A stretch of 64,000 nt of DNA from Bacteroidia bacterium (lineage in GTDB: Bacteria > Bacteroidota > Ignavibacteria > UBA10030), in the NCBI GenBank assembly GCA_022180565.1, contig BQML01000018.1:1-64000 (forward strand), in the 5' to 3' direction. The notes below the pieces were generated by a model. The model saw only the letters and a program-made list of their open reading frames with translations. It was not told the origin of the DNA and ran no database searches. Shown here piece by piece: positions 40,411 through 60,412 of the stretch (its first letter is position 1; every line of letters starts with the position of its first letter). Position numbers and translations under genes: made by a program.

Positions 40411-41904
40411 GTGAGACGCATTTTCCCCCTTTCTTTCTACAACCCGATCACTCTCCTGGGTGCCGCCGTCGCCACCGTCAGCTTCGGTCTGATCCTGTTT
40501 CTCACCATCCTGGAATTGTTTGCGGCCGAGCAGAAGCCGTACATGGGCATCCTCACGTTTATCGTGCTGCCGGGGATACTGCTGATCGGCATCGGATTGA
40601 TCGTTCTTGGAATCCTGAGAGAGCACCGCAGGGAACGACTCGGAAAACCGCTGGGGCTTCACCTTCCGGTCATCGACCTAAACAATCCGCGTCACCGCAC
40701 TGCCTTTACGTTCGCTTCGAGCGGAGCAATTCTGCTCCTTGCATTTTCCGCCTTCGGCAGTTTCAAGGCTTACGAGTATACGGATTCCGATCAGTTCTGC
40801 GGCGAGATGTGCCATACGGTGATGGAGCCTGAGTACACGGCCTATCAGTTTTCGCCGCACGCGCGCGTCGGGTGCGTGAAATGCCATATCGGACCCGGAG
40901 CAGGATGGTTTGTCCGATCGAAGCTCTCCGGAGCCTATCAGGTGTATGCGACGACGTTCGACCTCTATCCGCGGCCAATTCCCACCCCCATCCAAAATCT
41001 TCGTCCTGCGCAGGAAACGTGCGAACAATGCCATTGGCCCAAGCACTTTTTCAGCGAAAAGCAGAAGGAGCACACCTATTTCATGACGGACGAAGCGAAC
41101 ACCCGATGGAAACTGAATCTCCTGATGAAGATCGGCGGCGGGAATATTGAAGCAGGTCCTACTTCGGGTATTCATTGGCACATGAACATCGCCAACGAAG
41201 TGATTTATGCCCACAGAGATTCGGCCCGGCAGGATATTCCCTGGATCAGGGTTCGGAGCGCTGATGGAACGGTGAAGATCTACACGCGGGAGGGTTCGAG
41301 TCTGACCGATGAAGAACTCGAGGCTCTCCCCAAGCGCCGCATGGACTGCATCGATTGCCACAACAGACCAACTCATATTTACCATCCGCCGACGCGCTCG
41401 GTCAACCACGTAATGGCGCTCGGTTGGATCAGCCCCGAGCTTCCGTTTGCAAAGAGCCTTGCCGTGGATGCCCTCGAACAGCCCTATTCGTCCAAGGAAG
41501 CTGCCCTCGACAGTATCCGCCTCATGATCGAAGGCTTTTACCACGACCGGTATCCGCAGGTCGCCGCAGCGCGTTCCGCAGAGATCGAGCGGATGGTTGT
41601 CGAGACTCAAAAGATCTATTCACGGAATTATTTCCCTTACATGAAGGTGAGCTGGAAACGCTTCACGGACAACATCGGTCACTTATATTATCAGGGCTGT
41701 TTCCGCTGTCATGACGAACAACATTCGACCGAGTCGGGGGAAACACTCACCAAGGACTGCAACGCGTGCCACACGATTCTCGCTCAGGAACTTGGAAAGG
41801 GGCACCAACGCATTTCCCTGACGGGCATCGAATACCGGCACCCCGTCGATATCGGAGACGCCTGGAAAACCATGAACTGCAACGAATGCCATAACCCCCA
41901 ATAG
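40411..41904 (+). CDS. NapC/NirT-type membrane cytochrome c, seven heme sites
   Basis: The 497-residue protein has two N-terminal membrane segments (about residues 10-40 and 50-75), a third near 105, and a periplasmic heme part. The first heme site is CGEMCHTVMEPEYTAYQFSPHARVGCVKCH, with the x3 spacing CxxxCH seen in one group of NapC/NirT proteins. Six further CxxCH sites follow (CVKCH, CEQCH, CIDCH, CFRCH, CNACH, CNECH). It would oxidise quinol and hand electrons to periplasmic cytochromes. The start is a GTG at 40411 where similarity begins; the frame is open upstream over the aminotransferase gene. It forms a tight operon with Rieske, cytochrome b and an 11-heme protein. Confidence 0.87.
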   Translation: MRRIFPLSFYNPITLLGAAVATVSFGLILFLTILELFAAEQKPYMGILTFIVLPGILLIGIGLIVLGILREHRRERLGKPLGLHLPVIDLNNPRHRTAFTFASSGAILLLAFSAFGSFKAYEYTDSDQFCGEMCHTVMEPEYTAYQFSPHARVGCVKCHIGPGAGWFVRSKLSGAYQVYATTFDLYPRPIPTPIQNLRPAQETCEQCHWPKHFFSEKQKEHTYFMTDEANTRWKLNLLMKIGGGNIEAGPTSGIHWHMNIANEVIYAHRDSARQDIPWIRVRSADGTVKIYTREGSSLTDEELEALPKRRMDCIDCHNRPTHIYHPPTRSVNHVMALGWISPELPFAKSLAVDALEQPYSSKEAALDSIRLMIEGFYHDRYPQVAAARSAEIERMVVETQKIYSRNYFPYMKVSWKRFTDNIGHLYYQGCFRCHDEQHSTESGETLTKDCNACHTILAQELGKGHQRISLTGIEYRHPVDIGDAWKTMNCNECHNPQ

Positions 41905-41913
41905 GAAAACGCC

Positions 41914-42360
41914 ATGCCTGAGACCAATCCATCGGGCGGCAAGCGCGAATTCCTGAAGGTTTTGTTGGGAGGAAGCTTCTTCGCGTGGCTGGCCTCGGTT
42001 CTGTATCCGGTTCTCGCGTACATGAAGCCGCCGCCGCAAGCCGGGGTCGAGGTAAGCTCCGTCAACGCAGGACTTGTTTCGGATCTTCCTCCCGATTCTG
42101 GCAGAATCATCAAGTTCGGCACAAAACCGGTGATTCTTATCAAAACTGCTTCGGGAGACCTGAAGGCGTTCGACGCGACGTGCACGCATCTCGACTGCAC
42201 GGTTCAGTACCGCGCGGACATGGGCGTGATTTGGTGCGCGTGCCACAACGGAAAATATGATCTGACGGGACGGAACATCGACGGGCCTCCGCCAAGGCCG
42301 CTTGCACCCTATCGTGTCACTCTGCAGGGCGACGAGATCCTCGTGTCGAAAACGACATGA
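41914..42360 (+). CDS. Rieske iron-sulfur protein
   Basis: The 148-residue protein has an N-terminal membrane anchor (residues 11-32, [24 protein letters not shown]) and a Rieske domain with the 2Fe-2S ligands CTHLDC and CACHNGKYD. It would be the high-potential iron-sulfur subunit of a quinol-oxidising bc complex, facing the periplasm. The GGKREFLK start looks like a tail of a twin-arginine-like signal but has only one Arg after a Lys. It lies 9 bases after the NapC-like gene and overlaps the cytochrome b start by ATGA. Confidence 0.93.
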
Positions 42361-43436
42361 TGAACTTTCTCCGACAAACATACATTTGGCTTGATGAGCG
42401 ACTCCAACTGAGGGACCTTGTCGATTTTCTCGGCAAGAAATATGTGCCGGTGCACCGTCACTCCGTCTGGTACTATTTTGGCGGAGTCTCCCTCTTTCTG
42501 TTTCTTGTCCAGGTTGTCACCGGGATCCTCCTCTTGCTCTACTACAAGGGAAGCGAGGAGCTTGCGTTCGAGAGCATCCAGTTCATCATGTCGCGCGTAC
42601 AGTTTGGATGGCTTATCCGTTCCATTCACAGCTGGGCGGCAAATCTCTTCATTCTTGCCGCGCTGATCCACATGTTCAGCGTGTTCTTTGAAAAGGCCTA
42701 CCGCAAGCCGCGTGAACTCACCTGGGTTACCGGCATGCTCATGTTGTTTGTGGGATTCGGGTTTGGATTCAGCGGTTATCTCCTGCCGTGGAATGAACTC
42801 GCTTTCTTTGCCACGAAGGTAGGCACCGACATTGCAGGCGTGGTTCCGGTCATTGGCAAGCCTCTCCTCGAATTTCTGCGCGGCGGCCCGGAGGTGACCG
42901 GGGCAACCCTTTCCAGATTCTTCGGATTCCATGTTGCGGTCTTTCCCGGCATTTTTACAATCCTCCTGGGCATCCATCTTCTGCTCGTTCAGCGCCAGGG
43001 AATGAGTGAGCCACTCGGTCTCGAGAAGAACCCGTCCCTCGAGCAGAAACGCATGCCGTTTTTCCCCAATTTCCTCCTGCGCGACCTGCTGCTGTGGCTC
43101 ATGGTGCTCAATCTCCTCGCCATCCTGGCCGTGTTCTTCCCCTGGGAGTTGGGACAAAAGGCCGATCCGTTCGCTCCGGCCCCTGCCGGAATCAAGCCCG
43201 AGTGGTACTTCATGTTCATGTTCCAGACTCTCAAGCTCCTCCCCGCGCACGTCTTGTTTGTGGATGGGGAAGTGCTCGGCATCAGCTTGTTCGGCCTGGC
43301 CGGTATCCTCTGGCTTCTTGTCCCATTCTGGGACCGCAGGAGTGCTCGTGGGGAACAGAACAGATTTGTCAACTACCTCGGTCTGTTTGCCACGCTCTAT
43401 ATCATCCTCTTCACCATCCTGGGCTACCTGTCATGA
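42357..43436 (+). CDS. Cytochrome b of a bc-type quinol oxidoreductase
   Basis: A 359-residue integral membrane protein with about eight segments. The two heme-b histidine pairs are seen in [21 protein letters not shown] and [24 protein letters not shown]. The quinol-site motif is present as [16 protein letters not shown], corresponding to the PEWY loop. The layout is that of cytochrome b6 and subunit IV joined, or a short cytochrome b. With the Rieske protein upstream it forms the core of a bc complex. Cytochrome c1 is missing; the NapC-like 7-heme and the 11-heme proteins probably replace it. Overlaps on both sides by ATGA. Confidence 0.94.
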
Positions 43437-44890
43437 TCCGACGTCTTGTGCTCATGGTGCTCTTCACGGCCGTTCCCCTCCCCGGTCAGGATCATGTCGA
43501 CCAGTGCCTGCAGTGTCACCAGACCCTCGAAGATGAGCCCTCCACCTTATTCATCCGCGACATTCATCGCCTCCGCGGCATTACCTGTGCAGGCTGTCAC
43601 GGGGGAGACCCCAGAGCGGAGGAAATGGAAGATGCCATGAACAAGCAGACGGGCTTCTTAGGTGTGCCAAAAGGCGATGAGATCACAGGCCGGTGTGTGA
43701 AATGCCATTCTGACCAGGAGAGGATGAAGTCCTATGGATCCAACGGGAGAACCGATCAGGAACTTCTCCTCCGTCAGAGTGTTCATGGTCGTCTTTCCGT
43801 CTCCGGAAAGGAGCGACTTGTCCAATGCACGACCTGTCACAATGCGCATGGGATCGTCAGCGTCAAGGACAAGAGATCTCCCGTTCATCCGCTCAACGTG
43901 ACCGCAACATGCGCCTCCTGCCACGGAAACCCGGCATACATGCGCAATTACAATCCGGCCCTTCCCGTCGATCAGCTCCCCAAGTACCGGACGAGTGTAC
44001 ATGGCCGGCGGAACGCGCGCGGGGACACTCGCGTAGCCGAGTGCGCAAGCTGTCACGGGAGCCACGATATCCGCTCCGCACACGATGTGAAGTCAAGCGT
44101 TTACCCCACAAATCTGCCTGCCACGTGCGCGTCCTGCCATAGTGATTCGGTGCGGATGAAGCCCTATGGAATCCCCACAAATCAGTACGAATCCTTTGCC
44201 GAAAGTGTGCACGGGATCGCGCTCCTTGAGAAACACGATCCCGGCGCCCCCGCGTGCAATGACTGTCACGGCAATCACGGAGCGGCTCCCCCAGGAGTCC
44301 AGTCGGTTTCGCAGGTTTGCGGAACGTGTCATGCGCTCAATGCGGATTTGTTTTCCCGAAGTCCTCATAAGAGGGCGTTTGATCAGAGAAATCTTCCGGA
44401 ATGCGAGACCTGTCATGGGAACCACAGCATCGTTGCCGTCACCGACAGGTTGATTGGATCAGAGCCGCCGGCGGTGTGTGCACAATGCCATTCACCAACG
44501 GAGTATCCCGCGGGATACACCGCTGCGATGTCCATGCGCGCGATAATTGACTCCCTGGTCACGCTCGAAGAGCAGGCTCGGGCCCTTGTTGAAGAGGCAG
44601 AGCAAAAAGGCATGGAGGTTTCGGAACAGCGCTTCGCTCTCAGGTCTGTGCGTCAGGCTCGCCTGGAATCCAGGACAACGATCCATGCCTTCGACAAAGC
44701 CAAGTTGCAGGAAGTCGCGGCAAAAGGCATCGCGGCGGCACGAGACATCCATGTTCAGGCACAGGAAGCGATTGATGAATATTACTTTAGAAGAATCGGT
44801 CTCGGAGTGAGCACGCTGATCATTACGCTTCTGGTTATCGGGTTGTATCTGTACATTAAGAAAATCGAATCGAACGGCCAACAACGGTGA
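43433..44890 (+). CDS. 11-heme cytochrome c with C-terminal membrane anchor
   Basis: The 485-residue protein has a signal peptide ([17 protein letters not shown]), 11 CxxCH sites up to about residue 350, a long helical stretch (residues 360-440) and a last membrane segment ([18 protein letters not shown]). The fold of the heme part resembles the cytochrome c nitrite reductase and octaheme families only in general form. I see no CxxCK catalytic heme. It would be periplasmic, tethered to the inner membrane, and take electrons from the Rieske/cytochrome b core. It is the last gene of the complex and starts on an ATGA overlap. Confidence 0.9.
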
Positions 44891-44998: not shown

Positions 44999-45538
44999 AT
45001 GATCAAGCAATCGCTGGGTATTGTGACCCTCTTTCTCTTCACTTTTTCAGCTCTCCCTGCACAGAACAAATTTGTCGGTACCAAGATGTGTGCCCCCTGT
45101 CATCGTACGGAAAAGCAGGGAAAACAAATGGATATCTGGCAAAAGAGTCCGCACGCTTCTGCGTACAAAGCACTGACCACAGCCAAGGCAAATGAGGTGG
45201 CGAAACAGAAGGGTTTTACGACCCCTGCCGCAGAAACGGCCGAATGTCTGAGCTGTCATGCGCCGGAACATGCGGCGAAGAATGTCGAGAAATCCTTCAA
45301 CGCTCAGGAAGGCGTTCAGTGCGAAACCTGCCACGGTGCGGGGTCGGCGTATAAGACCATTACGATCATGAAGGATCGTGCAAAATCCATTGCGGCCGGC
45401 ATGACCGAGTATAAGGACGCGGCAGCCATAGAAGCGAAGTGCCGGACATGCCATAACGAGAAGAGTCCTACTTTCAAGGGATTCAACTTTGAGGAATACT
45501 GGAACAAAATCAAACATCCGGTGCCCAAAGCAGGATGA
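44999..45538 (+). CDS. Cytochrome c-554-like 4-heme protein
   Basis: The 179-residue protein has a signal peptide (SLGIVTLFLFTFSALPAQ) and four CxxCH sites: CAPCH, CLSCH, CETCH and CRTCH. The arrangement HKM..FVGTKMCAPCH followed by WQKSPHASAYKAL is typical of the cytochrome c-554 family, periplasmic electron carriers. The start ATG at 44999 follows AGGAG; an upstream frame overlaps the promoter. It lies between the bc complex and the porin operon and could carry electrons between them. A hairpin terminator follows. Confidence 0.92.
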   Translation: MIKQSLGIVTLFLFTFSALPAQNKFVGTKMCAPCHRTEKQGKQMDIWQKSPHASAYKALTTAKANEVAKQKGFTTPAAETAECLSCHAPEHAAKNVEKSFNAQEGVQCETCHGAGSAYKTITIMKDRAKSIAAGMTEYKDAAAIEAKCRTCHNEKSPTFKGFNFEEYWNKIKHPVPKAG

Positions 45539-45796: not shown

Positions 45797-47095
45797 ATGA
45801 AAATCAAACTGACGCTTATTCTAGCCCTCGGCGTTGTCTCGGCGGTCCAAACTTCTTTCTCGCAGTTTCTTCAGGCCAGGCTTGTCACCTCGGCCTACGC
45901 CTGGCAGCGTCACGACACTGTCGGGATATCCTCCAATCATTTGTACGGCTATCAATCTGCGCAGTTCTCCATCTCTCAGGATGACTTCACGTTCTCCACC
46001 TATCTGCAAGCGTGGAACGACTTTTCGGGACCTTTGAAGAACAAGGGGAGGATCCGCCTTTATTCCCTCCAACTGAAATGGCGGGATATCGGGGGCGTCG
46101 GCGATGCCACAGTGGGCAGACAGGCGATTTTCGCGGGTGTGGGGAACGGAACCGTGGACGGTGTTTCGGCCACAGCCCGATTCCTCGATCACCGTATCAA
46201 GGTTCTTGGGTATCTTGGAGCCCTGGCACCGGCCGGAATGAAGGGAGAGATCATCGATCATCCCTCGAAGAACGCGATGTTCGGCGCTCAGGTGGTTGCG
46301 ATGCCCGTGGACTTCGGACAGATCTCGGTGAGCTACGCGAACAAGCGCATCCAGCCCGAAGCGTACACTGCACTTCGGCGCGACTCGCTTTTCAACCCGG
46401 TCCTTGTGGAAATCAGCCCCTCGGCCAGGATCGAAGAGTATCTCAGTGTCGATGCGAGCGCCGAGTACGACATGGTGTACGGGTACGTTCGCTATGATCA
46501 CGATCTGCAGTTTGCGAAGATGTCCCGGATTCAATTGTTCACGCGTGTTACGCCGATCGACCGGATCGGGATTACCGGAGAGTATTTAAAACGCGAACCT
46601 CGCATCTCGTTCAATTCGATCTTCTCGGCGTTTACTTACAATTCCCTCGAAGAGTTCGAGGTCGGTCTTGAGTACGACGTTCATTTTCTTGACGGCGTTC
46701 GAACGTTTGCGCGTTACGGGGAAGTCTCTTACGGCGACGAGATTTCCCAGCAATACACGTTTGGAGCAAACTGGAAGTACGTTTCTGCCAGCGCCTCGAG
46801 CTTGAGCGGATACAACGGCAGGATCAACGCGGCAACAATCAACGGGGGCTATCCGTTGTTTGACCATATGCTCACGCCCACGGCGTCATTCACGTACGGC
46901 TATTACAAACTGAACCGCTATCAGGCGAAACGCGATCCTGCGTTGAGCGCGTCCATCGGAGCAGTGTACAGACCCATGCCGGTTTTGTCCGTGGACACCC
47001 AGGTGCAGTGGATTCAAAACAAGATCTACAAGAACGATGTCCGGGTATTTCTCCGGGCAAGCTACCTTCTCAGCGAACGACTCACACTGTTTTGA
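45797..47095 (+). CDS. Outer-membrane beta-barrel protein (porin-like)
   Basis: The 432-residue protein has a signal peptide (KIKLTLILALGVVSAVQTSFSQ) followed by alternating amphipathic strands rich in Tyr, Gly and charged residues, ending in LLSERLTLF with a C-terminal Phe as in outer-membrane barrels. No family name is certain. The order porin, 14-heme, 7-heme lipoprotein, 6-heme lipoprotein resembles porin-cytochrome conduits of metal-reducing bacteria such as Geobacter, where a barrel insulates a periplasmic cytochrome reaching through the outer membrane. I infer the same role. The next gene begins 7 bases later. Start ATG 45797 is set by the signal peptide. Confidence 0.82.
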   Translation: MKIKLTLILALGVVSAVQTSFSQFLQARLVTSAYAWQRHDTVGISSNHLYGYQSAQFSISQDDFTFSTYLQAWNDFSGPLKNKGRIRLYSLQLKWRDIGGVGDATVGRQAIFAGVGNGTVDGVSATARFLDHRIKVLGYLGALAPAGMKGEIIDHPSKNAMFGAQVVAMPVDFGQISVSYANKRIQPEAYTALRRDSLFNPVLVEISPSARIEEYLSVDASAEYDMVYGYVRYDHDLQFAKMSRIQLFTRVTPIDRIGITGEYLKREPRISFNSIFSAFTYNSLEEFEVGLEYDVHFLDGVRTFARYGEVSYGDEISQQYTFGANWKYVSASASSLSGYNGRINAATINGGYPLFDHMLTPTASFTYGYYKLNRYQAKRDPALSASIGAVYRPMPVLSVDTQVQWIQNKIYKNDVRVFLRASYLLSERLTLF

Positions 47096-47102
47096 GACTC
47101 CC

Positions 47103-48341
47103 ATGAGACTTCCTCCAGTGTTCCGCTCCAGTATCGTTCTGCAGGGATATTTGTTCCTCGCGGGTATCTTTCTGCTGATTTTCGCGGCGACGTTCGTTAC
47201 GCAATCGGGCGAGCCGGACGACAAGCAGGACCGGGCGGCGCTCATCAAGTTTTCCCATGCTTATCACATCAAGGAAGTCGGCGTAGCCTGTGTGGACTGC
47301 CACGACGCCGCCCCGACCAGCCGGCTTTCAGCGGACAATTTGCTCAGCAAGAAAGCCAATTGTGAGTCATGTCATGAGGAACAGCTGGCCAACAACTGCA
47401 CTTTCTGCCATACGAGCGATAATCCCGAGACCTACGTTGCCTTCCTGAGCCCGATCCGTGAGCTTAGATTCAATCACGACCTGCATGTCAACGGCCAGAG
47501 CATGCAGTGCGAAACGTGCCACACGGGGATGGACCAGATGACCCTGGCAACCGAGAAGAGCCTACCGCCGATGGCGACGTGCAACACCTGCCATAACGAC
47601 CTGGCCGCCTCGAACGCCTGTGAAACCTGCCACACCGATTTCGCCGCCCTCCGGCCTGCCGGCCACGACAGAACGACGTTCGTGACCGAACACAAGTTCC
47701 TCGCCCGGATGCAGGATGCGACCTGCATGTCGTGTCACACCGAGGAATCCTGCCAGGATTGCCACAGTAATCCGGACCTCGTGCAAACCGGCCTCGAGAA
47801 ACGCGATCTTGTTTCCCCAAGGGCCACGCGCATCACGGCGAACGATCGTGCCCAGGGAATGGTGCTGAAAAAAGTCCACGATCTGAACTTCCGCTTTACA
47901 CATGGAGTGGTGGCTTCGGCAAAGGCTGGGGAATGTGCGACCTGTCATTCCACCGAGCAATTCTGTTCCACCTGCCACATGGCGGGCGGAAACATCACGC
48001 AGGCGCAGTTCCGTCCTCTGACTCACCAACAGCCCAATTTTACGACGCTGGGATTCGGCTCGGGCGGCGGGCTCCATGCAACGCTCGCCCGGAGAGATAT
48101 CGAGAGCTGTGCATCGTGTCACGATGCCCAGGGGGCCGATCCCACATGCATCACCTGTCACATGGATTCCGACGGTCTCAAGAACACGGATCCCCGAACG
48201 CATTCGCGCGGATTCATGAGGGACGTGAAGGGAGACTGGCATTCCGATCCGGGTTCGAGTTGTTATGTATGTCATTCCGATGGCAACGCCCGCGTAGGCG
48301 GAGTGAGCGGAATCGGCTTTTGCGGATACTGCCATCAATAA
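47103..48341 (+). CDS. 14-heme cytochrome c
   Basis: The 412-residue protein has an N-terminal hydrophobic stretch (GYLFLAGIFLLIFAATFV) that serves as signal or anchor, then 14 CxxCH sites: CVDCH, CESCH, CTFCH, CETCH, CNTCH, CETCH, CMSCH, CQDCH, CATCH, CSTCH, CASCH, CITCH, CYVCH and CGYCH. It has no catalytic signature that I can name. It follows the porin by 7 bases and would be the periplasmic or barrel-spanning cytochrome of an outer-membrane conduit. The ATG at 47103 is the first after the porin stop. Confidence 0.9.
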   Translation: MRLPPVFRSSIVLQGYLFLAGIFLLIFAATFVTQSGEPDDKQDRAALIKFSHAYHIKEVGVACVDCHDAAPTSRLSADNLLSKKANCESCHEEQLANNCTFCHTSDNPETYVAFLSPIRELRFNHDLHVNGQSMQCETCHTGMDQMTLATEKSLPPMATCNTCHNDLAASNACETCHTDFAALRPAGHDRTTFVTEHKFLARMQDATCMSCHTEESCQDCHSNPDLVQTGLEKRDLVSPRATRITANDRAQGMVLKKVHDLNFRFTHGVVASAKAGECATCHSTEQFCSTCHMAGGNITQAQFRPLTHQQPNFTTLGFGSGGGLHATLARRDIESCASCHDAQGADPTCITCHMDSDGLKNTDPRTHSRGFMRDVKGDWHSDPGSSCYVCHSDGNARVGGVSGIGFCGYCHQ

Positions 48342-48353
48342 CCGGGACAGGCC

Positions 48354-49223
48354 ATGAAGAACACTCAACTCTTTCTGACCGGCATAACGACCATCGCCCT
48401 TCTCACGGGGGGCTGTAGTGACCTGAAGGATACGCTTCCCCCGGTGGCGGAGAATACGGGCGTGCATCCGGCCGGTTGGCTGACAAAGACGTCCGCCGAT
48501 TTTCACGGCAACGCGATACGCAACCAGGGGTGGGATATGCGTCCATGCCGGACATGCCACGGAAGCTCGTACACCGGCGGCACATCCATGGTCTCCTGCC
48601 GAACGTGCCACACTGAAGTGCTCGGACCCGAGCATTGCAATGTTTGCCATGGTTCGGCATCGAACTCGGCCCCCCCGCGCGATCTGAGTGGAAACACCGA
48701 CAAAAGTTTTCGCGGTGTAGGCCAGCACCAGGTTCACGTTATGGGAACAGCCCGCACAGCCCCCGTGGGCTGTTCAACCTGCCATGTTCTGCCGGCGGGT
48801 GATATCTACGACCCAAATCACATTGACGCAAACCCCGGACAGGCCGAAGTGAACATGACAGGACTGGCGGCTAAACGAACCGCGGGCGCAACACCTGTAC
48901 CGGTGTACTACACGCAATCCACCGCCTGCGGCAACACTTATTGCCACGGGCAATTCAAGAACGGCAATGGTGATAATCCGATGTTCTGGGTCGGCGGCGC
49001 CGCTCTGAGCGGGGCTTGCGGGTCATGTCACGGGGATGTCTCCAGGCCTACGCTCGCCGAGCGCGCCCTCCCGAAAACTGCGGCGCAGGGGGGAACGCAT
49101 CCAAACAATCTGAACTGCGCCAATTGTCACGGAGATGTCGTCAATGCCAGTTTGCAGTTTGTCGATCCGTCAAAACACGTGAACGGATATCTGAATGTGT
49201 TTGGACAAGTAAGGGAGTTTTAG
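48354..49223 (+). CDS. Heptaheme lipoprotein cytochrome of CxxCH/Cx4CH type
   Basis: The 289-residue protein has a lipoprotein signal (LFLTGITTIALLTGGC) with a lipobox ending at Cys21. It has six CxxCH sites (CRTCH twice, CNVCH, CSTCH, CGSCH, CANCH) and one spaced CGNTYCH (Cx4CH), as in the CxxxxCH/CxxCH proteins of Geobacter and relatives. It is likely on the outer membrane, perhaps exposed. It starts 12 bases after the 14-heme gene. The lipid anchor and heme form support an outer-surface role in the conduit. Confidence 0.88.
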   Translation: MKNTQLFLTGITTIALLTGGCSDLKDTLPPVAENTGVHPAGWLTKTSADFHGNAIRNQGWDMRPCRTCHGSSYTGGTSMVSCRTCHTEVLGPEHCNVCHGSASNSAPPRDLSGNTDKSFRGVGQHQVHVMGTARTAPVGCSTCHVLPAGDIYDPNHIDANPGQAEVNMTGLAAKRTAGATPVPVYYTQSTACGNTYCHGQFKNGNGDNPMFWVGGAALSGACGSCHGDVSRPTLAERALPKTAAQGGTHPNNLNCANCHGDVVNASLQFVDPSKHVNGYLNVFGQVREF

Positions 49224-49264
49224 AGTGTTGTTGTTTTTCTGTTTTCAATATCCCGAATGTTAGA

Positions 49265-49288
49265 AGGCACACCACGAAGGTGGTGCCC
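49265..49288. other. Intercistronic hairpin in the cytochrome operon
   Basis: The sequence GGCACACCAC-GAAG-GTGGTGCC folds into a strong hairpin with a GAAG loop. There is no T run. It lies between the 7-heme and 6-heme genes, so it may modulate message stability or partial readthrough. Confidence 0.55.
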
Positions 49289-49322
49289 TAACAGTAGCAC
49301 ATTCATCGTCAGGAGGTTCTCC

Positions 49323-50489
49323 ATGAAAAAGATACTGTTGCTTGGTTCGACCCTGCTCGTTGCCTCACTTGTCGTTTCGGCCCTGCAGGGATGCAAAGGA
49401 CCCGAGGGACCGGCAGGTCCTCCGGGTGAGTCGACGATTCTCCAGCTCGAAGGCTTCGCTGAAGGGATCGTCTGCGGAGACTGTCATAATCCCGACACCG
49501 ACACGACGTACTACGTGTGGGCACGCAAGTATCAATGGGAGCAGTCGAAGCATTTCTACGGCGGAGATTATGAGCGGGCAGGTTCCGCGTGCGCAGAATG
49601 CCATACGACAGAAGGATTCATTCAAAAAACCGCCGGCAAGACAGTAACGGCGGCAGTGAACCCTTCGCCCCCCGGTTGCTTTGCATGCCACTCGCCCCAC
49701 TCCCGGGGAGATTTTTCCCTGCGCGTGTCTTCCCCTGTAACCCTGCTGGCCGGGATTGCCGGAGAAGCCGACGTAACATTTGATTTCGGGAAAGGAAACC
49801 TCTGCGCCTCATGCCATCGGCCAAGATCCATCAGTCCGAAACCTGATCCAACAAAAACCGCTGTGACGGACACGATTACGATCTCCAACAATCGCTGGTA
49901 TCAGCATTATGGAGTGCAGTCCAGCATTCTCAACGGGACGGGAGGGTTCAAGTTCACCGACTATACGTATGCCGGCAATTCAGCTCACACGACGGCACCC
50001 CTGATCAAATCGGAGGGATGCATTCAGTGCCACATGGCGAATCCTCCGATGACGCAATCGTATCCGTTTGGCGTCGCAGGCGGCCACACTATGAATATCC
50101 GGTACGACCTCCACGGAACACCGTCATCTCTGCTCGAAGGCTGTAAGAATACGGCGTGCCATCCGACCATTACTTCCGTGGACTACCACAGTGTTCAGAC
50201 CATTGTTACGGCGTATCTTGATACTCTGGCAACAATGATGACAGATACATCGATTGTCAATAAGTGGAACAAAGGTGCCAAGGTTCCATGGCTGGCCGGC
50301 GATGCTATTTCCGGGTATACGATCAATGCCGGCAGTGGAAGTAATGCCCTCAAGATCGCCCCTGCGTCGCGCGCCGGCGCGTTGTACAATTTCATGATGG
50401 TCGAGCACGATCTGAGCCACGGGGTTCATAACTCGGTCTATGTCATCGACCTGCTGAAATCATCGCTTGCCGAGCTCCGCAAGCCGTAG
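49323..50489 (+). CDS. Hexaheme lipoprotein cytochrome with collagen-like start
   Basis: The 388-residue protein has a lipoprotein signal (LLLGSTLLVASLVVSALQGC) followed by a short collagen-like linker GPEGPAGPPG. Six heme sites follow: CGDCH, CAECH, CFACH, CASCH, CIQCH and one wide CKNTACH (Cx4CH). The C-terminal 100 residues have no further heme and may bind a partner or surface. AGGAGG precedes the ATG at 49323; an upstream frame crosses the hairpin. It is the last gene of the porin operon and the best candidate for an outer-surface terminal cytochrome (inference). Confidence 0.88.
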   Translation: MKKILLLGSTLLVASLVVSALQGCKGPEGPAGPPGESTILQLEGFAEGIVCGDCHNPDTDTTYYVWARKYQWEQSKHFYGGDYERAGSACAECHTTEGFIQKTAGKTVTAAVNPSPPGCFACHSPHSRGDFSLRVSSPVTLLAGIAGEADVTFDFGKGNLCASCHRPRSISPKPDPTKTAVTDTITISNNRWYQHYGVQSSILNGTGGFKFTDYTYAGNSAHTTAPLIKSEGCIQCHMANPPMTQSYPFGVAGGHTMNIRYDLHGTPSSLLEGCKNTACHPTITSVDYHSVQTIVTAYLDTLATMMTDTSIVNKWNKGAKVPWLAGDAISGYTINAGSGSNALKIAPASRAGALYNFMMVEHDLSHGVHNSVYVIDLLKSSLAELRKP

Positions 50490-50515: not shown

Positions 50516-50550
50516 AAGGGCTGTCCCCATCGGGATGGCCCTTTGCTTTT
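50516..50550 (+). terminator. Rho-independent terminator of the porin/cytochrome operon
   Basis: Stem AAGGGC-x2-TCCC / GGGA-x2-GCCCTT (50516-50543) with a CATC loop, followed by TTGCTTTT. It lies 27 bases past the stop of the 6-heme gene, and just before the activator site for ccmF. Confidence 0.8.
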
Positions 50551-50752: not shown

Positions 50753-53077
50753 ATGGCAGCTTCAATTTTGGTCTGGATCGCGTTCGGGGCGGCGCTGGTG
50801 TCGGCGTTCGCCTATCATCAGAGCGCAACGAAGAAACGAATGCTGGTGCCGTTGGCCCGACGAAGCTTTGTCGTGATGGCCGCCGGCGTCGTCGCCGCTT
50901 CCATTCTGCTCATGATGTTCATTCTGCGGCATCAGTTTGAGTATTCGTACATCTGGAATTACAGCTCACGGGATCTCCCCCTCCCCCTCCTCCTGACAAC
51001 GTTCTGGGCCGGTCAGGAAGGAAGCTTCATGTTCTGGGCGCTCTGCAGTACGATCATCGGCTTCGGCCTGTTGAACTTCACGCGCAGAAAGCACATTGAA
51101 TACGAAACGATGGCCGTCTATTCCCTCCTTCAGGCATTCCTCCTTCTTCTGCTGCTTGTCAAATCACCGTTCAGATACATCTGGGATGCGTTTCCGGATC
51201 AGGTGCAGGTGGGATTCGTTCCGCCTGATGGCAAGGGATTGAACCCCCTCCTGCAGAATTTCTGGATGATCATCCATCCGCCGGTCCTTTTCATCGGCTT
51301 TGCGGCAATGGGCGTTCCCTTTGCGATGGCGGTGGCGGCGCTCTGGAAACGGTCATACAACGACTGGGTCATCAAGGCCCTTCCGTGGACCATGTTTGCA
51401 GCTATTGCTCTGGGCGCCGGGCTTATGTTCGGCGGGTACTGGGCCTACGGTGTTCTTGGCTGGGGTGGATGGTGGGGCTGGGATCCCGTCGAGAACTCCT
51501 CGTTGATCCCCTGGATCGTCGTGGTCGCACTCCTGCATACGCTCCTCGTTCAGAAAAAAACCGGGAAACTGATCAGAACGAACTTCATTCTGGCTGTTCT
51601 TGGTTTTGTTCTCGTCATCTACAGTACGTTCCTCACAAGAAGCGGAATTCTTGGCGATGCCTCTGTGCATTCGTTTGTGGATCCCGGAGCTTTTGCCTAC
51701 GCCCTTCTGGTTCTCTGGATGCTGACGGTCACCGTGCTTGGATTCGGCATGGTGCTCAGACGCTGGAAGGAGCTCAAGGCACTGGGGGCCCCTGTGGGCA
51801 GCTTCAGCCGCGAGTCGCTCATTGCCCTTGGTTCAGCCGCTCTTGGCGCCAGCGCACTCGTAATCTTTTTTGGAACGAGCCTTCCCATCGTTTCACGATC
51901 GACCATCGAGCCGAGTTTCTACGATTCCATGAACCTGCCGATTGCCGCGATCATGCTGCTCCTCCTGGGCATCAGCCTCCTCGTCCAATGGCGCGTCGAC
52001 TCCCCAGCCGGCCTGGTACGACGCTCGCTGAGAGGCATCCTCATCGCTCTCGCCGCAACGGCCGGGCTTTTCGCCGTCGGCGTCCGGGATCTTTCCATGC
52101 TCGCGCTCGCAGCCGCGTCCCTCTTTGCATTGGTAGTGAATGTCGAACGGCTCGTCGCTCTGGCACGCGTCAACCCGGCCGGCACCGGAGGCGCCATCGC
52201 CCACATCGGCCTGGCTCTCCTCTTCCTCGGCATCATAGGATCAGGCCGCTATGGGCAGAAGGTGACCGCCTCTCTTCCTCAAAACGAGCCGAAGGAGATT
52301 TTCGGTTACGCGGTCACCTACGAGGGAGCGCAACCGTTTGAGAACGGAACGAAATATCGGTTCAGAGTCTCGGTGGAGCGGAATGGATCGACGACGACCC
52401 TGTCGCCGGTGATGTTTCAGAGCAGTTATAACAACAGCCTCATGCGCGAACCTGACTACATGAGTTCCCTGGTTCGCGATTTCTATCTTGAACCTGTCGC
52501 AGTAGAAGCCACGCATGATCATGCCTCCGGAACCGTCTATGAATTCCCCAAGGGCGATGTGAAGGAAATCGAGGGAAAAAACATCACTTTCGTTCGCTTC
52601 GAGATGAACCAGCACGGCAATGAATCCATGGTGAGCGGCGAGGGATTCTCCGTCTCTGCGGTTCTTGAAGTGCGCGGTGGGAATAAGAAGGAGACCTTGA
52701 CTGCTTCCACGGTGTTCCGCCAAGGCCAGCCTCCCCAACCGGCCCCGGTAAGGACCCGGGACGGGGAGCTGGAGATCTCGTTCCTTGGGATGAACATCGA
52801 CAGGGATACGAGGCAATCGACCGTCCAGTTGAGCATCCGCAATCCGAAGACCGACGAACACGACCATGCACAGGATCGTGAGGTTCTGGTGGTGGAGGCC
52901 AGCCTCAAGCCGTTCATGAATCTCGTCTGGATCTCTGCGGTCCTGGTCCTCGGCGGCCTTGCACTTGCTCTTTCGGAAACGCGGAAGATCTCTCCTCCGC
53001 CTTCACCAAAGCGCAACAGCATGAAGAGAGAACCCGCAGTGGAACAAGAACCTGCGATGGAAGAAATCGTATCGTAG
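50753..53077 (+). CDS. ccmF: Cytochrome c maturation heme lyase CcmF-like
   Basis: The 774-residue integral membrane protein belongs to the CcmF/CcsA group that joins heme to CxxCH motifs in the periplasm. About 14 membrane segments flank the tryptophan-rich heme loop WGWGGWWGWDPVENSS near residue 240. WAGQEGSFMFWAL and the conserved HPPVLFIGFAAMGVPFAMAV block are also CcmF features. A soluble periplasmic part (about residues 505-730) and a last segment near 735 end the protein. No ccmABCE genes are in the window; they must be elsewhere. A consensus sigma-54-type promoter and dyad precede it, so cytochrome assembly would be switched on with the cytochromes. Confidence 0.93.
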   Translation: MAASILVWIAFGAALVSAFAYHQSATKKRMLVPLARRSFVVMAAGVVAASILLMMFILRHQFEYSYIWNYSSRDLPLPLLLTTFWAGQEGSFMFWALCSTIIGFGLLNFTRRKHIEYETMAVYSLLQAFLLLLLLVKSPFRYIWDAFPDQVQVGFVPPDGKGLNPLLQNFWMIIHPPVLFIGFAAMGVPFAMAVAALWKRSYNDWVIKALPWTMFAAIALGAGLMFGGYWAYGVLGWGGWWGWDPVENSSLIPWIVVVALLHTLLVQKKTGKLIRTNFILAVLGFVLVIYSTFLTRSGILGDASVHSFVDPGAFAYALLVLWMLTVTVLGFGMVLRRWKELKALGAPVGSFSRESLIALGSAALGASALVIFFGTSLPIVSRSTIEPSFYDSMNLPIAAIMLLLLGISLLVQWRVDSPAGLVRRSLRGILIALAATAGLFAVGVRDLSMLALAAASLFALVVNVERLVALARVNPAGTGGAIAHIGLALLFLGIIGSGRYGQKVTASLPQNEPKEIFGYAVTYEGAQPFENGTKYRFRVSVERNGSTTTLSPVMFQSSYNNSLMREPDYMSSLVRDFYLEPVAVEATHDHASGTVYEFPKGDVKEIEGKNITFVRFEMNQHGNESMVSGEGFSVSAVLEVRGGNKKETLTASTVFRQGQPPQPAPVRTRDGELEISFLGMNIDRDTRQSTVQLSIRNPKTDEHDHAQDREVLVVEASLKPFMNLVWISAVLVLGGLALALSETRKISPPPSPKRNSMKREPAVEQEPAMEEIVS

Positions 53078-57992: not shown

Positions 57993-59324
57993 ATGGAAGA
58001 CGCCCTCCTCATCAACCGGCTCCAATTCGCCTTCACCATCATGTTTCATTATCTCTTTCCCCAGCTGACGATGGGCCTGGGTCTTCTCCTTGTCCTCATG
58101 AAGGGGGCGTTCCTGAAGACCGGAAACAACCGCTACAATGAAGCGGCACGCTTTTGGGGGAAGATCTTCGCCGTCAATTTTGCCCTGGGCGTTGTCACGG
58201 GAATTCCGATGGAGTTCCAGTTCGGCACCAATTGGGCGCGGTTCTCTACGTTTGCGGGAGGCGTCATCGGACAAACATTGGCGATGGAAGGCATGTTCGC
58301 TTTCTTTCTGGAATCAAGCTTTCTCGGCCTGTTCTTGTTCGGAGAAAAGAAGCTTGGACCGAAAGGCCATTTTGCGGCGGCCCTGGCGGTTTTTGCCGGG
58401 TCGTGGATCTCCGGCTACTTCATCGTGGCCACCAATGCATGGATGCAGAATCCCGTCGCCTATACCGTTGCGGCCGACGGGACCGTTCATCTCAACGACT
58501 TCTGGGGACTGCTCCTGAACCCCTGGCTCCTCTGGCAGTACACGCACACAATGATCGGCTCGGTCATTACCGCGGCGTTCGTGGTGTGCGCTGTGGGCGC
58601 CTACTATATTCTTTCCGGAAAGCATCCCGAACACGGCATGGTGTTCATGCGTTTCGGCGTTCCCGCCGGTTTAATCGCTTCTGTTCTTGTGGCGTTCCCA
58701 ACGGGCGACGCCCATGCACGCATGGTGGCCGAAAAACAACCCGTGACGTTCGCTGCTATGGAGGGACTGTTCGAAACGAAAGAAGGTGCCGAACTCGTTT
58801 TCATCGGTCAACCCGATATGGAGAAACTCGCCATCGACAACCCTCTGCACATTCCGAAATTGCTGAGTTTTCTCACGCACTATCGATGGGAGGCCGAGAT
58901 CCATGGACTCAAGGAATTCGACCGTTCCCTGTGGCCGACCAACATTCCGCTTTTGTATTACAGTTACCACGTGATGGTCGGATTGGGTACGATCTTTATT
59001 GTCGTCATGGTCACATCATTCTATGCGCTGAAACGCAATACCTTGCCGTCCCTCCGCTGGCTGTTGTGGATCCTGATGCTTGCGTTTCCGTTTCCGTACA
59101 TTGCCAACACCGCGGGGTGGATGACGGCGGAGCTTGGCCGCCAACCGTGGCTGGTGTACGGACTCATGCGGACGGTCGATGGAACATCCACGACCGTTTC
59201 AGCGGGAAACAGTCTGTTCACTCTCCTCGGATTCATCGGTATGTATTTTGTCCTGGGCACGCTGTTCGTCCTCCTGGTCCTCAAACGAATCAATACGGGA
59301 CCGGTGGCAGTGGAGGGTTCTTAA
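57993..59324 (+). CDS. cydA: Cytochrome bd ubiquinol oxidase subunit I
   Basis: The 443-residue subunit carries the hemes of cytochrome bd, which reduces oxygen with quinol at high affinity. His19 (FTIMFHYLFPQLTMG) corresponds to the heme b595 ligand, EFQFGTNW and GRQPWLVYGLMRT are conserved blocks, and about nine membrane segments are visible. The Q-loop is short. It would protect the oxygen-sensitive ferredoxin enzymes and cytochromes from oxygen. It forms an operon with the radical SAM gene before it and cydB after it, the latter across a 41-base gap with a repeat. Confidence 0.95.
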   Translation: MEDALLINRLQFAFTIMFHYLFPQLTMGLGLLLVLMKGAFLKTGNNRYNEAARFWGKIFAVNFALGVVTGIPMEFQFGTNWARFSTFAGGVIGQTLAMEGMFAFFLESSFLGLFLFGEKKLGPKGHFAAALAVFAGSWISGYFIVATNAWMQNPVAYTVAADGTVHLNDFWGLLLNPWLLWQYTHTMIGSVITAAFVVCAVGAYYILSGKHPEHGMVFMRFGVPAGLIASVLVAFPTGDAHARMVAEKQPVTFAAMEGLFETKEGAELVFIGQPDMEKLAIDNPLHIPKLLSFLTHYRWEAEIHGLKEFDRSLWPTNIPLLYYSYHVMVGLGTIFIVVMVTSFYALKRNTLPSLRWLLWILMLAFPFPYIANTAGWMTAELGRQPWLVYGLMRTVDGTSTTVSAGNSLFTLLGFIGMYFVLGTLFVLLVLKRINTGPVAVEGS

Positions 59325-59325
59325 C

Positions 59326-59346
59326 TTCACCATTCACCATTCACCA
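59326..59346. repeat. Three tandem TTCACCA units between cydA and cydB
   Basis: Seven-base unit TTCACCA repeated three times without change, filling most of the 41-base intercistronic gap. Copy number could vary between strains and alter spacing to the cydB start. Confidence 0.75.
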
Positions 59347-59365
59347 TCCAGCCCTTTCATAGCCA

Positions 59366-60412
59366 ATGGAAACTCTCTGGTTTGCTCTCGTCGCCTTTAT
59401 GCTGGCAATGTATGTGATTCTCGACGGTTTTGATCTCGGAACGGGAATCATTCATTTTCTCGCGGCAAGGAATCCGGAAGAGCGGAACATTCTCCTGCGT
59501 GCCATTGGGCCCGTGTGGGACGGCAATGAGGTATGGCTCCTGGCCGCGGGCGGCACCCTGTACTTCGCCTTCCCGCTTCTCTACGCATCGAGCTTCAGCG
59601 GCTTTTACCTTCCACTCATGATCGTTCTCTGGCTCCTGATGCTTCGGGGCCTGGGCATCGAGTTTCAGCACCAGGTCCATAATCCGCTCTGGAAATCCTT
59701 CTGGCATATCGTCTTTTCCTTCGCCAGCATATTGCTGACGATCTTCTTCGGCGCAGCGTTGGGGAATGTGGTACGCGGGGTACCGCTGAACGCTGACGGG
59801 TACTTCTTTGAACCGCTCTGGACCACTTTCACCGTTGTCCCCGAGGCAGGAATTCTCGACTGGTTCACGGTGCTCATGGGACTCGTAGCGTTCTTCGTCC
59901 TTGCCAACCACGGATCGAACTACATAGCGCTCAAGACCCTGGATCCTATACGGACGAGAGCTCACACGCTCGCGCGCGGTTCTTGGTGGGGCGTAGTACT
60001 GACTTCCGTTGCCGCCCTTGCCGCCACCTGGTCCATCCATCCGGAGATCTGGGACAACTACAGTTCGTTTGTCTGGGGCTGGATCTTCCCCGCCGCCGGC
60101 GTTGCGGGACTGTTTGGTATGTGGTACTTCAACAGGACCCAGGAGGACCTGAAAGCCTTTCTATCATCCTCTCTTTTTATAGCAGGCATGCTGGCCGCCA
60201 CGGCCTTCGGTCTGTACCCCAAAGTGCTTCCTGCCTCAACCAATCCCGCCTACAGCCTTACCGTGTACAACACCCGCGCGCAGGAATACGGACTTCAGGT
60301 CGGACTCACCTGGTGGCTGATCGGAATAGTATTTGTCGCTGGATATTTCTTCTACGTCTACCGCACATTCCGGGGGAGAATCACGGTTGTGACGGAGGAT
60401 GGGGGATATTAA
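59366..60412 (+). CDS. cydB: Cytochrome bd ubiquinol oxidase subunit II
   Basis: The 348-residue protein is the second subunit of cytochrome bd. It starts with METLWFALVAFMLAMYVILDGFDLGTGIIH, the CydB hallmark, followed by IGPVWDGNEVWLLAAGGTLYFAFP and ANHGSNYIALKT. About eight membrane segments cover the length, which is in the normal range (335-380). It pairs with cydA upstream. A CydX-like small subunit was looked for downstream in 60413-60450 and not found. Confidence 0.95.
   Translation: METLWFALVAFMLAMYVILDGFDLGTGIIHFLAARNPEERNILLRAIGPVWDGNEVWLLAAGGTLYFAFPLLYASSFSGFYLPLMIVLWLLMLRGLGIEFQHQVHNPLWKSFWHIVFSFASILLTIFFGAALGNVVRGVPLNADGYFFEPLWTTFTVVPEAGILDWFTVLMGLVAFFVLANHGSNYIALKTLDPIRTRAHTLARGSWWGVVLTSVAALAATWSIHPEIWDNYSSFVWGWIFPAAGVAGLFGMWYFNRTQEDLKAFLSSSLFIAGMLAATAFGLYPKVLPASTNPAYSLTVYNTRAQEYGLQVGLTWWLIGIVFVAGYFFYVYRTFRGRITVVTEDGGY

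What the first reader, a model, noticed from the sequence alone, without database searches (positions are those of the whole stretch)
45797..50489. Porin plus 14-, 7- and 6-heme cytochromes: a candidate outer-membrane electron conduit
A signal-bearing beta barrel is followed within 7 bases by a 14-heme protein and then by two lipoprotein cytochromes, both with one wide Cx4CH site. This is the composition of porin-cytochrome complexes for extracellular electron transfer, but the proteins do not look like MtrABC or the Geobacter OmbB/OmaB/OmcB sets by any motif I know. The collagen-like linker after the lipid anchor of the last protein is unusual and may extend it from the surface.
Basis: partly seen in the sequence, partly recalled or inferred. 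Interest (0 to 1): 0.78.

Follow-up and report, generated by a model that had tools for sequence, protein, structure and literature searches.

The report
Ignavibacterial outer-membrane electron conduit operon
This is a set of genes for a protein 'wire' that probably carries respiratory electrons through the outer membrane of an Ignavibacteria-type bacterium; the same conduit was already reported from Ignavibacterium album in 2014, but here it sits beside genes for the inner-membrane half of the pathway.

Summary
A plug-less beta barrel (predicted 22 strands), a 14-heme cytochrome 7 bases downstream, and two lipoprotein cytochromes with 6+1 and 5+1 heme sites are encoded at 45797-50489. In 81 of 81 related loci the barrel lies directly upstream of the multiheme protein, and in 78 of 79 a Cx4CH cytochrome follows. 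The interpretation (outer-membrane electron conduit) is well supported. The suggestion that it matches no known set is only partly right. It has the composition, gene order and heme numbers published for the porin-cytochrome (Pcc) cluster IALB_1837-1840 of Ignavibacterium album, and orthologous clusters occur in Melioribacter, Stygiobacter, Ignavibacterium and Kryptonium records. Other papers call Ignavibacteria porins 'OmbB-like'; I could not test that sequence relation. MtrB is excluded. The collagen-like linker is real (3-9 Gly-X-Y triplets) but belongs only to the accessory last cytochrome, found in 12 of 80 loci. The window therefore encodes a near-complete quinol-to-surface chain, which favours outward electron flow. 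No function was tested. Verdict: new member of a known kind.

The parts
45797..47095 (+). 22-stranded outer-membrane barrel without plug domain (conduit sheath)
   Evidence: AlphaFold2 model mean pLDDT 91.6, pTM 0.82, 22 long strands after a signal helix; closest solved folds are barrels of 22-strand TonB-dependent transporters and other large pores; no Pfam, NCBIfam or PDB sequence family
47103..48341 (+). 14-heme c-type cytochrome, proposed wire inside the barrel
   Evidence: 14 CxxCH; core of 12 hemes plus a C-terminal pair in most orthologues; 12 invariant extra His and invariant Met157 among 52 sequences; barrel directly upstream in 81 of 81 loci
48354..49223 (+). 7-heme lipoprotein cytochrome (6 CxxCH + 1 Cx4CH), conserved outer-membrane cytochrome of the conduit
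   Evidence: orthologue directly downstream in 79 of 79 loci, 78 with Cx4CH
49323..50489 (+). 6-heme lipoprotein cytochrome (5 CxxCH + 1 Cx4CH) with collagen-like Gly-X-Y linker after the lipid Cys; accessory surface cytochrome
   Evidence: linker of 3-9 Gly-X-Y triplets in its orthologues; present in 12 of 80 loci
50516..50543 (+). terminator-like hairpin closing the conduit operon
   Evidence: 12-pair stem followed by T-rich tail
44999..45538 (+). tetraheme cytochrome c554-like protein, proposed periplasmic carrier
   Evidence: PF13435 E 4.8e-16; c554-type gene upstream in 53 of 57 loci with enough flank
43433..44890 (+). 11-heme cytochrome with C-terminal membrane helix
   Evidence: 11 CxxCH and one helix at 455-473
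42357..43436 (+). cytochrome b (b6/subunit IV type)
   Evidence: PF00033 E 7.7e-49, PF00032 E 7e-10
41914..42360 (+). Rieske iron-sulfur protein
   Evidence: PF00355 E 4.3e-13
40411..41904 (+). ImcH-type inner-membrane quinol oxidase, 497 aa from a GTG start
   Evidence: three N-terminal helices, one CX3CH next to the third, six CX2CH, NapC/NrfH similarity match the published ImcH description (PMC6295460)

Best explanation
A porin-cytochrome (Pcc) conduit of the Ignavibacteria type for extracellular electron transfer. Proposed path: menaquinol is oxidised at the inner membrane by the ImcH-type protein and/or the Rieske/cytochrome b/11-heme complex. Electrons cross the periplasm via the tetraheme c554-like protein, enter the 14-heme protein, and pass through the outer membrane inside the 22-strand barrel. 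They leave through the surface lipoprotein cytochromes (7-heme always, 6-heme with collagen-like spacer in this lineage) to an acceptor such as Fe(III)/Mn(IV) oxide, humics, an electrode or a partner cell. Shown here: gene content, heme counts, order, conservation, barrel fold (predicted). Inferred: insertion of the 14-heme protein into the barrel, surface exposure, electron flow and its direction, the acceptor.
For: Barrel found in 76 of 100 relatives and in 57 same-class genomes of a phylum-wide draw. Barrel model has 22 strands and no plug, so its lumen needs a filler. Its most conserved long external loop (267-283, EPRxxYNSIFSxF) has pLDDT under 50 at 270-278 without a partner, as expected of a docking loop. 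Published I. album cluster: porin IALB_1839, 14-heme 400-aa IALB_1838, atypical-motif outer-membrane cytochrome IALB_1837, periplasmic IALB_1840 (PMC4245776), the same as Ignavibacterium loci L145 and L153. ImcH-type, Rieske and cytochrome b upstream.
Against: No experiment on this organism or family. I. album itself did not grow on Fe(III) or Mn(IV) oxides (PMC4245776). The 14-heme model is poor (pLDDT 61.5), and no complex with the barrel could be predicted. The window copy has no clear signal-peptidase site and could stay anchored in the inner membrane. Surface exposure of the lipoproteins is not shown.
Confidence: 0.85

Rival explanations
1. Same conduit, but used inward: electrons are taken from outside (Fe(II), cathode, partner cell) to the quinone pool.
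For: Conduits of Mto/Pio type work inward (PMC6295460); cytochrome bd at 57993-60412 offers an oxygen sink.
Against: ImcH has been implicated only in quinol oxidation (PMC6295460), and the Rieske/cytochrome b pair also normally oxidises quinol. Melioribacter reduces Fe(III) (PMC6137239).
Confidence: 0.08
2. The 14-heme protein is an inner-membrane-anchored electron carrier of ActA/NapC type, and the barrel is a separate porin.
For: Uncleaved-looking N-terminal helix in the window copy; only 49 of 75 orthologues have a plausible cleavage site. The N-terminal half resembles ActA of alternative complex III (sequence; fold Z 6.7-6.9).
Against: Strict adjacency to the barrel in every locus is not expected of an unrelated porin; plausible cleavage sites in two thirds of orthologues; ActA's partner genes are not in this operon.
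Confidence: 0.05
3. The barrel is a substrate-specific porin and the adjacency to cytochromes is incidental.
For: Foldseek ranks substrate-specific porins (OccD/OccK, AlgE) and ushers among the matches.
Against: Adjacency conserved 81 of 81; 22 strands without plug; the matches reflect barrel size only, at 6-16% identity.
Confidence: 0.02

Closest known systems
Pcc gene cluster of Ignavibacterium album JCM 16511 (IALB_1837-1840; Shi et al. 2014, PMC4245776)
   Same: porin, 14-heme protein of about 400 aa, outer-membrane cytochrome with atypical motif, extra periplasmic cytochrome, same order; named Ignavibacterium loci carry clear orthologues of all four
   Different: here an extra 6-heme lipoprotein with collagen-like linker, and the imcH/Rieske/cytochrome b/11-heme genes directly upstream
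OmbB-OmaB-OmcB of Geobacter sulfurreducens
   Same: order porin, periplasmic multiheme, outer-membrane lipoprotein cytochrome; porin in the 18-22 strand range given for Pcc porins; Cx4CH/CxxCH domain first described from Geobacter (PF09698)
   Different: 8-heme and 12-heme partners in Geobacter against 14 and 7+6 here; sequence relation of the porins not tested here, published as distant (PMC4245776) or OmbB-like (PMC7399161)
MtrCAB / MtoAB / PioAB
   Same: function as outer-membrane conduit of barrel plus multiheme wire
   Different: no MtrB_PioB match in the barrel or in the whole genome; 14 rather than 10 hemes
ImcH (Geobacter)
   Same: 40411-41904 has the published ImcH make-up (3 TM, CX3CH, six CX2CH, about 500 aa)
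   Different: the 2018 survey found no mtrAB/mtoAB next to imcH; here imcH lies beside a Pcc-type conduit in many genomes
Dodecaheme cytochrome GSU1996 (3ov0)
   Same: best sequence-profile match of the 14-heme family in the PDB, E 2.8e-26
   Different: GSU1996 belongs to no barrel cluster as far as I know; similarity is of repeated c7-type modules

Membership tests
[quoted passage not shown]
   22 strands in a confident model; range from PMC4245776
Pcc porin-cytochrome complex (OmbB/OmaB/OmcB type) | adjacent periplasmic c-cytochrome with 5-14 typical hemes and no atypical motif | tested here: met
   14 CxxCH, no Cx3-5CH, directly downstream in 81 of 81 loci; periplasmic location itself not shown
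Pcc porin-cytochrome complex (OmbB/OmaB/OmcB type) | outer-membrane lipoprotein cytochrome in the same cluster, often with atypical heme motif | tested here: met
   7-heme and 6-heme lipoproteins, each with one Cx4CH; location in the outer membrane itself not shown
Pcc porin-cytochrome complex (OmbB/OmaB/OmcB type) | porin sequence homologous to OmbB | not testable with these tools
   no OmbB sequence or profile on hand; published as homologous for other Ignavibacteria (PMC6137239, PMC7399161)
Pcc porin-cytochrome complex (OmbB/OmaB/OmcB type) | trans-outer-membrane electron transfer by the purified complex | not testable with these tools
   needs biochemistry
Ignavibacteria Pcc cluster (IALB_1837-1840 type) | porin + about 400-aa 14-heme protein + atypical-motif cytochrome in this order, orthologous to Ignavibacterium proteins | tested here: met
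   about 42% identity over 400 aa of the 14-heme protein and conserved four-gene block in Ignavibacterium L145 and L153; the type-strain record itself was not retrieved
Mtr/Mto/Pio conduits | MtrB_PioB barrel (PF11854) | tested here: not met
   no match in the barrel or in six frames of the genome
Mtr/Mto/Pio conduits | decaheme MtrA-type wire | tested here: not met
   14 hemes; DmsE/MtrA-type model TIGR03508 only 21.8 bits against a cut-off of 192
ImcH quinol oxidase (40411-41904) | three N-terminal TM helices, CX3CH beside the third, six CX2CH, 495-519 aa | tested here: met
   against PMC6295460

The most novel reading that the evidence does not exclude
The 14-heme protein keeps its N-terminal helix in the inner membrane and reaches across the periplasm into the barrel. 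Together with the ImcH/Rieske/cytochrome b module encoded next to it, this would form one continuous quinol-to-surface wire, and the collagen-like spacer would hold a mobile reductase head away from the cell.
Probability: 0.07. Interest if true: 0.8.

Novelty: new member of a known kind. Interest (0 to 1): 0.42.

Why it matters
The conduit was known from single Ignavibacteria genomes. Here the barrel is found in most genomes sampled from its order and in many of its class, with strict linkage of barrel and wire, so extracellular electron transfer may be close to a core trait of this environmental group. The side-by-side imcH, Rieske/cytochrome b and conduit genes give a testable whole pathway and a likely direction. 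The barrel family has no public profile in Pfam or NCBIfam, so annotation pipelines miss it.

Tried and rejected
Genome-collection scan with the barrel alignment: no conserved stretch long enough, so the 14-heme alignment was used. Sequence search of the PDB with the barrel and its profile: only chance hits to a viral spike. Plasmid search with the 14-heme protein: only partial hits to c3-type cytochromes of other complexes. RNA families and tRNAs: none. Promoter scan: no more than chance. Four loci first scored as lacking the barrel were wrong anchors in my script and disappeared on recount. Barrel matches to ushers, Occ porins and TonB-dependent transporters are taken as barrel size only. 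Barrel/14-heme mirror-tree correlation of 0.92 was not used as proof, since common descent alone gives high values. Fold search with the 14-heme model is weak because that model is poor.

Full report
Observation. Fourteen, six and five CxxCH motifs compare with shuffled means of 0.12, 0.05 and 0.02. The two Cx4CH sites are real. In the 7-heme protein the site lies in a domain that Pfam and NCBIfam know from Geobacter (PF09698, TIGR01904).

Barrel. The 432-residue protein matches no Pfam, NCBIfam or PDB sequence; single relatives give weak hits to generic outer-membrane barrel models. With 72 sequences AlphaFold2 gives a confident model (pLDDT 91.6, pTM 0.82) of a signal helix and 22 long strands, with no plug domain (strands counted by me from the listed elements, leaving out a short hairpin at 190-206). 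Solved structures of similar fold are the barrels of TonB-dependent transporters, which also have 22 strands but carry a plug. A pore that wide would leak unless filled. The 17-residue loop 267-283 is the most conserved long loop (mean 0.69 against 0.40-0.48 for the other loops of nine residues or more), and its residues 270-278 are the only stretch with pLDDT under 50. That is what a loop ordered only by a partner would look like (inference).

Fourteen-heme protein. Its family has a core of 12 hemes; most members add a C-terminal pair. Among 52 members of the 14-heme form, 12 further His are invariant, matching the 12 non-motif His of the window protein, plus Met157. So twelve hemes can be bis-His and one may be His/Met (inference). 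The N-terminal half resembles ActA of alternative complex III and multi-c7 cytochromes. Two thirds of the orthologues have a plausible signal-peptidase site; the window copy has none, so anchor versus signal is open.

Linkage. A scan of named genomes with the 14-heme alignment gave 80 loci, whose titles name Ignavibacteria, related Bacteroidota bins and Kryptonia, or no group. In 81 of 81 instances the barrel is directly upstream, and in 79 of 79 a relative of the lipoprotein cytochromes follows, 78 with Cx4CH. The barrel is found in 76 of 100 relatives and, in a draw over the phylum, in 57 genomes of the same class and one outside it, which has the same four-gene block with the barrel reading frame broken.

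Known or new. Shi et al. 2014 (PMC4245776) describe in Ignavibacterium album a Pcc cluster with porin IALB_1839, a 14-heme 400-residue protein IALB_1838, an outer-membrane cytochrome with atypical motif IALB_1837 and a periplasmic cytochrome IALB_1840. Two Ignavibacterium loci here (L145, L153) have that block with 398- and 400-residue 14-heme proteins orthologous to the window's. Later papers report OmbB-like or Geobacter-like porins in Ignavibacteria and Melioribacter (PMC7399161; PMC6137239). So this is a member of a described conduit type. It is not Mtr: neither the barrel nor the genome matches MtrB_PioB.

What the finding left out. Upstream, on the same strand, are a 497-residue protein with three N-terminal helices, one CX3CH and six CX2CH, which is the published description of ImcH (PMC6295460); a Rieske protein; a cytochrome b; an 11-heme cytochrome with a C-terminal helix; and a c554-like tetraheme protein. 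Of 57 named loci with at least 8 kb upstream, 23 have the imcH-type gene, 20 the Rieske/cytochrome b pair, 17 both, and 53 a c554-type gene. Melioribacter-type genomes instead carry 16- to 19-heme modules there. The outer-membrane block is thus constant and the inner-membrane module varies. ImcH is known only as a quinol oxidase, which favours outward flow.

Collagen-like linker. It is present in nearly all full-length orthologues of the last cytochrome, 3 to 9 Gly-X-Y triplets between the lipid Cys and the first heme. That protein occurs in 12 of 80 loci, so it is an accessory surface part, not part of the core conduit. That it acts as a spacer is inference.

Mechanism and limits. Electron flow menaquinol, ImcH/Rieske-b complex, c554-like carrier, 14-heme wire in the barrel, 7-heme and 6-heme lipoproteins, external acceptor is the best reading. 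Only gene content, conservation and the barrel fold are computed results; the rest is inference. I. album did not grow on Fe(III) or Mn(IV) oxides (PMC4245776), so the natural acceptor may be something else.

Noticed in passing
window 40411-41904: ImcH-type quinol oxidase gene close upstream of an outer-membrane conduit; the 2018 ImcH survey saw no mtrAB/mtoAB next to imcH. Linkage recurs in 23 of 57 loci.
   Followed up: partly
window 41914-44890: Rieske/cytochrome b pair with an 11-heme, C-terminally anchored cytochrome where cytochrome c1 or f would be expected.
   Followed up: partly
window 50753-53077: CcmF/NrfE-type heme lyase directly downstream of the conduit operon, in the same place in many relatives.
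   Followed up: no
window 57993-60412: Genes read as cytochrome bd oxidase in the same window (by eye, no family search), so oxygen is a possible terminal acceptor as well.
   Followed up: no
L138 3908 onward: The c554-barrel-14-heme-lipoprotein block is present twice in tandem.
   Followed up: no
L171 6910-10821: Another class of the phylum carries the four-gene block with a 12-heme wire; the barrel is split over two frames (frameshift or assembly error).
   Followed up: partly
L090 (window-family relative): The downstream Cx4CH cytochrome is 875 aa with 18 CxxCH and 3 Cx4CH, a much enlarged version of the 7-heme lipoprotein.
   Followed up: no
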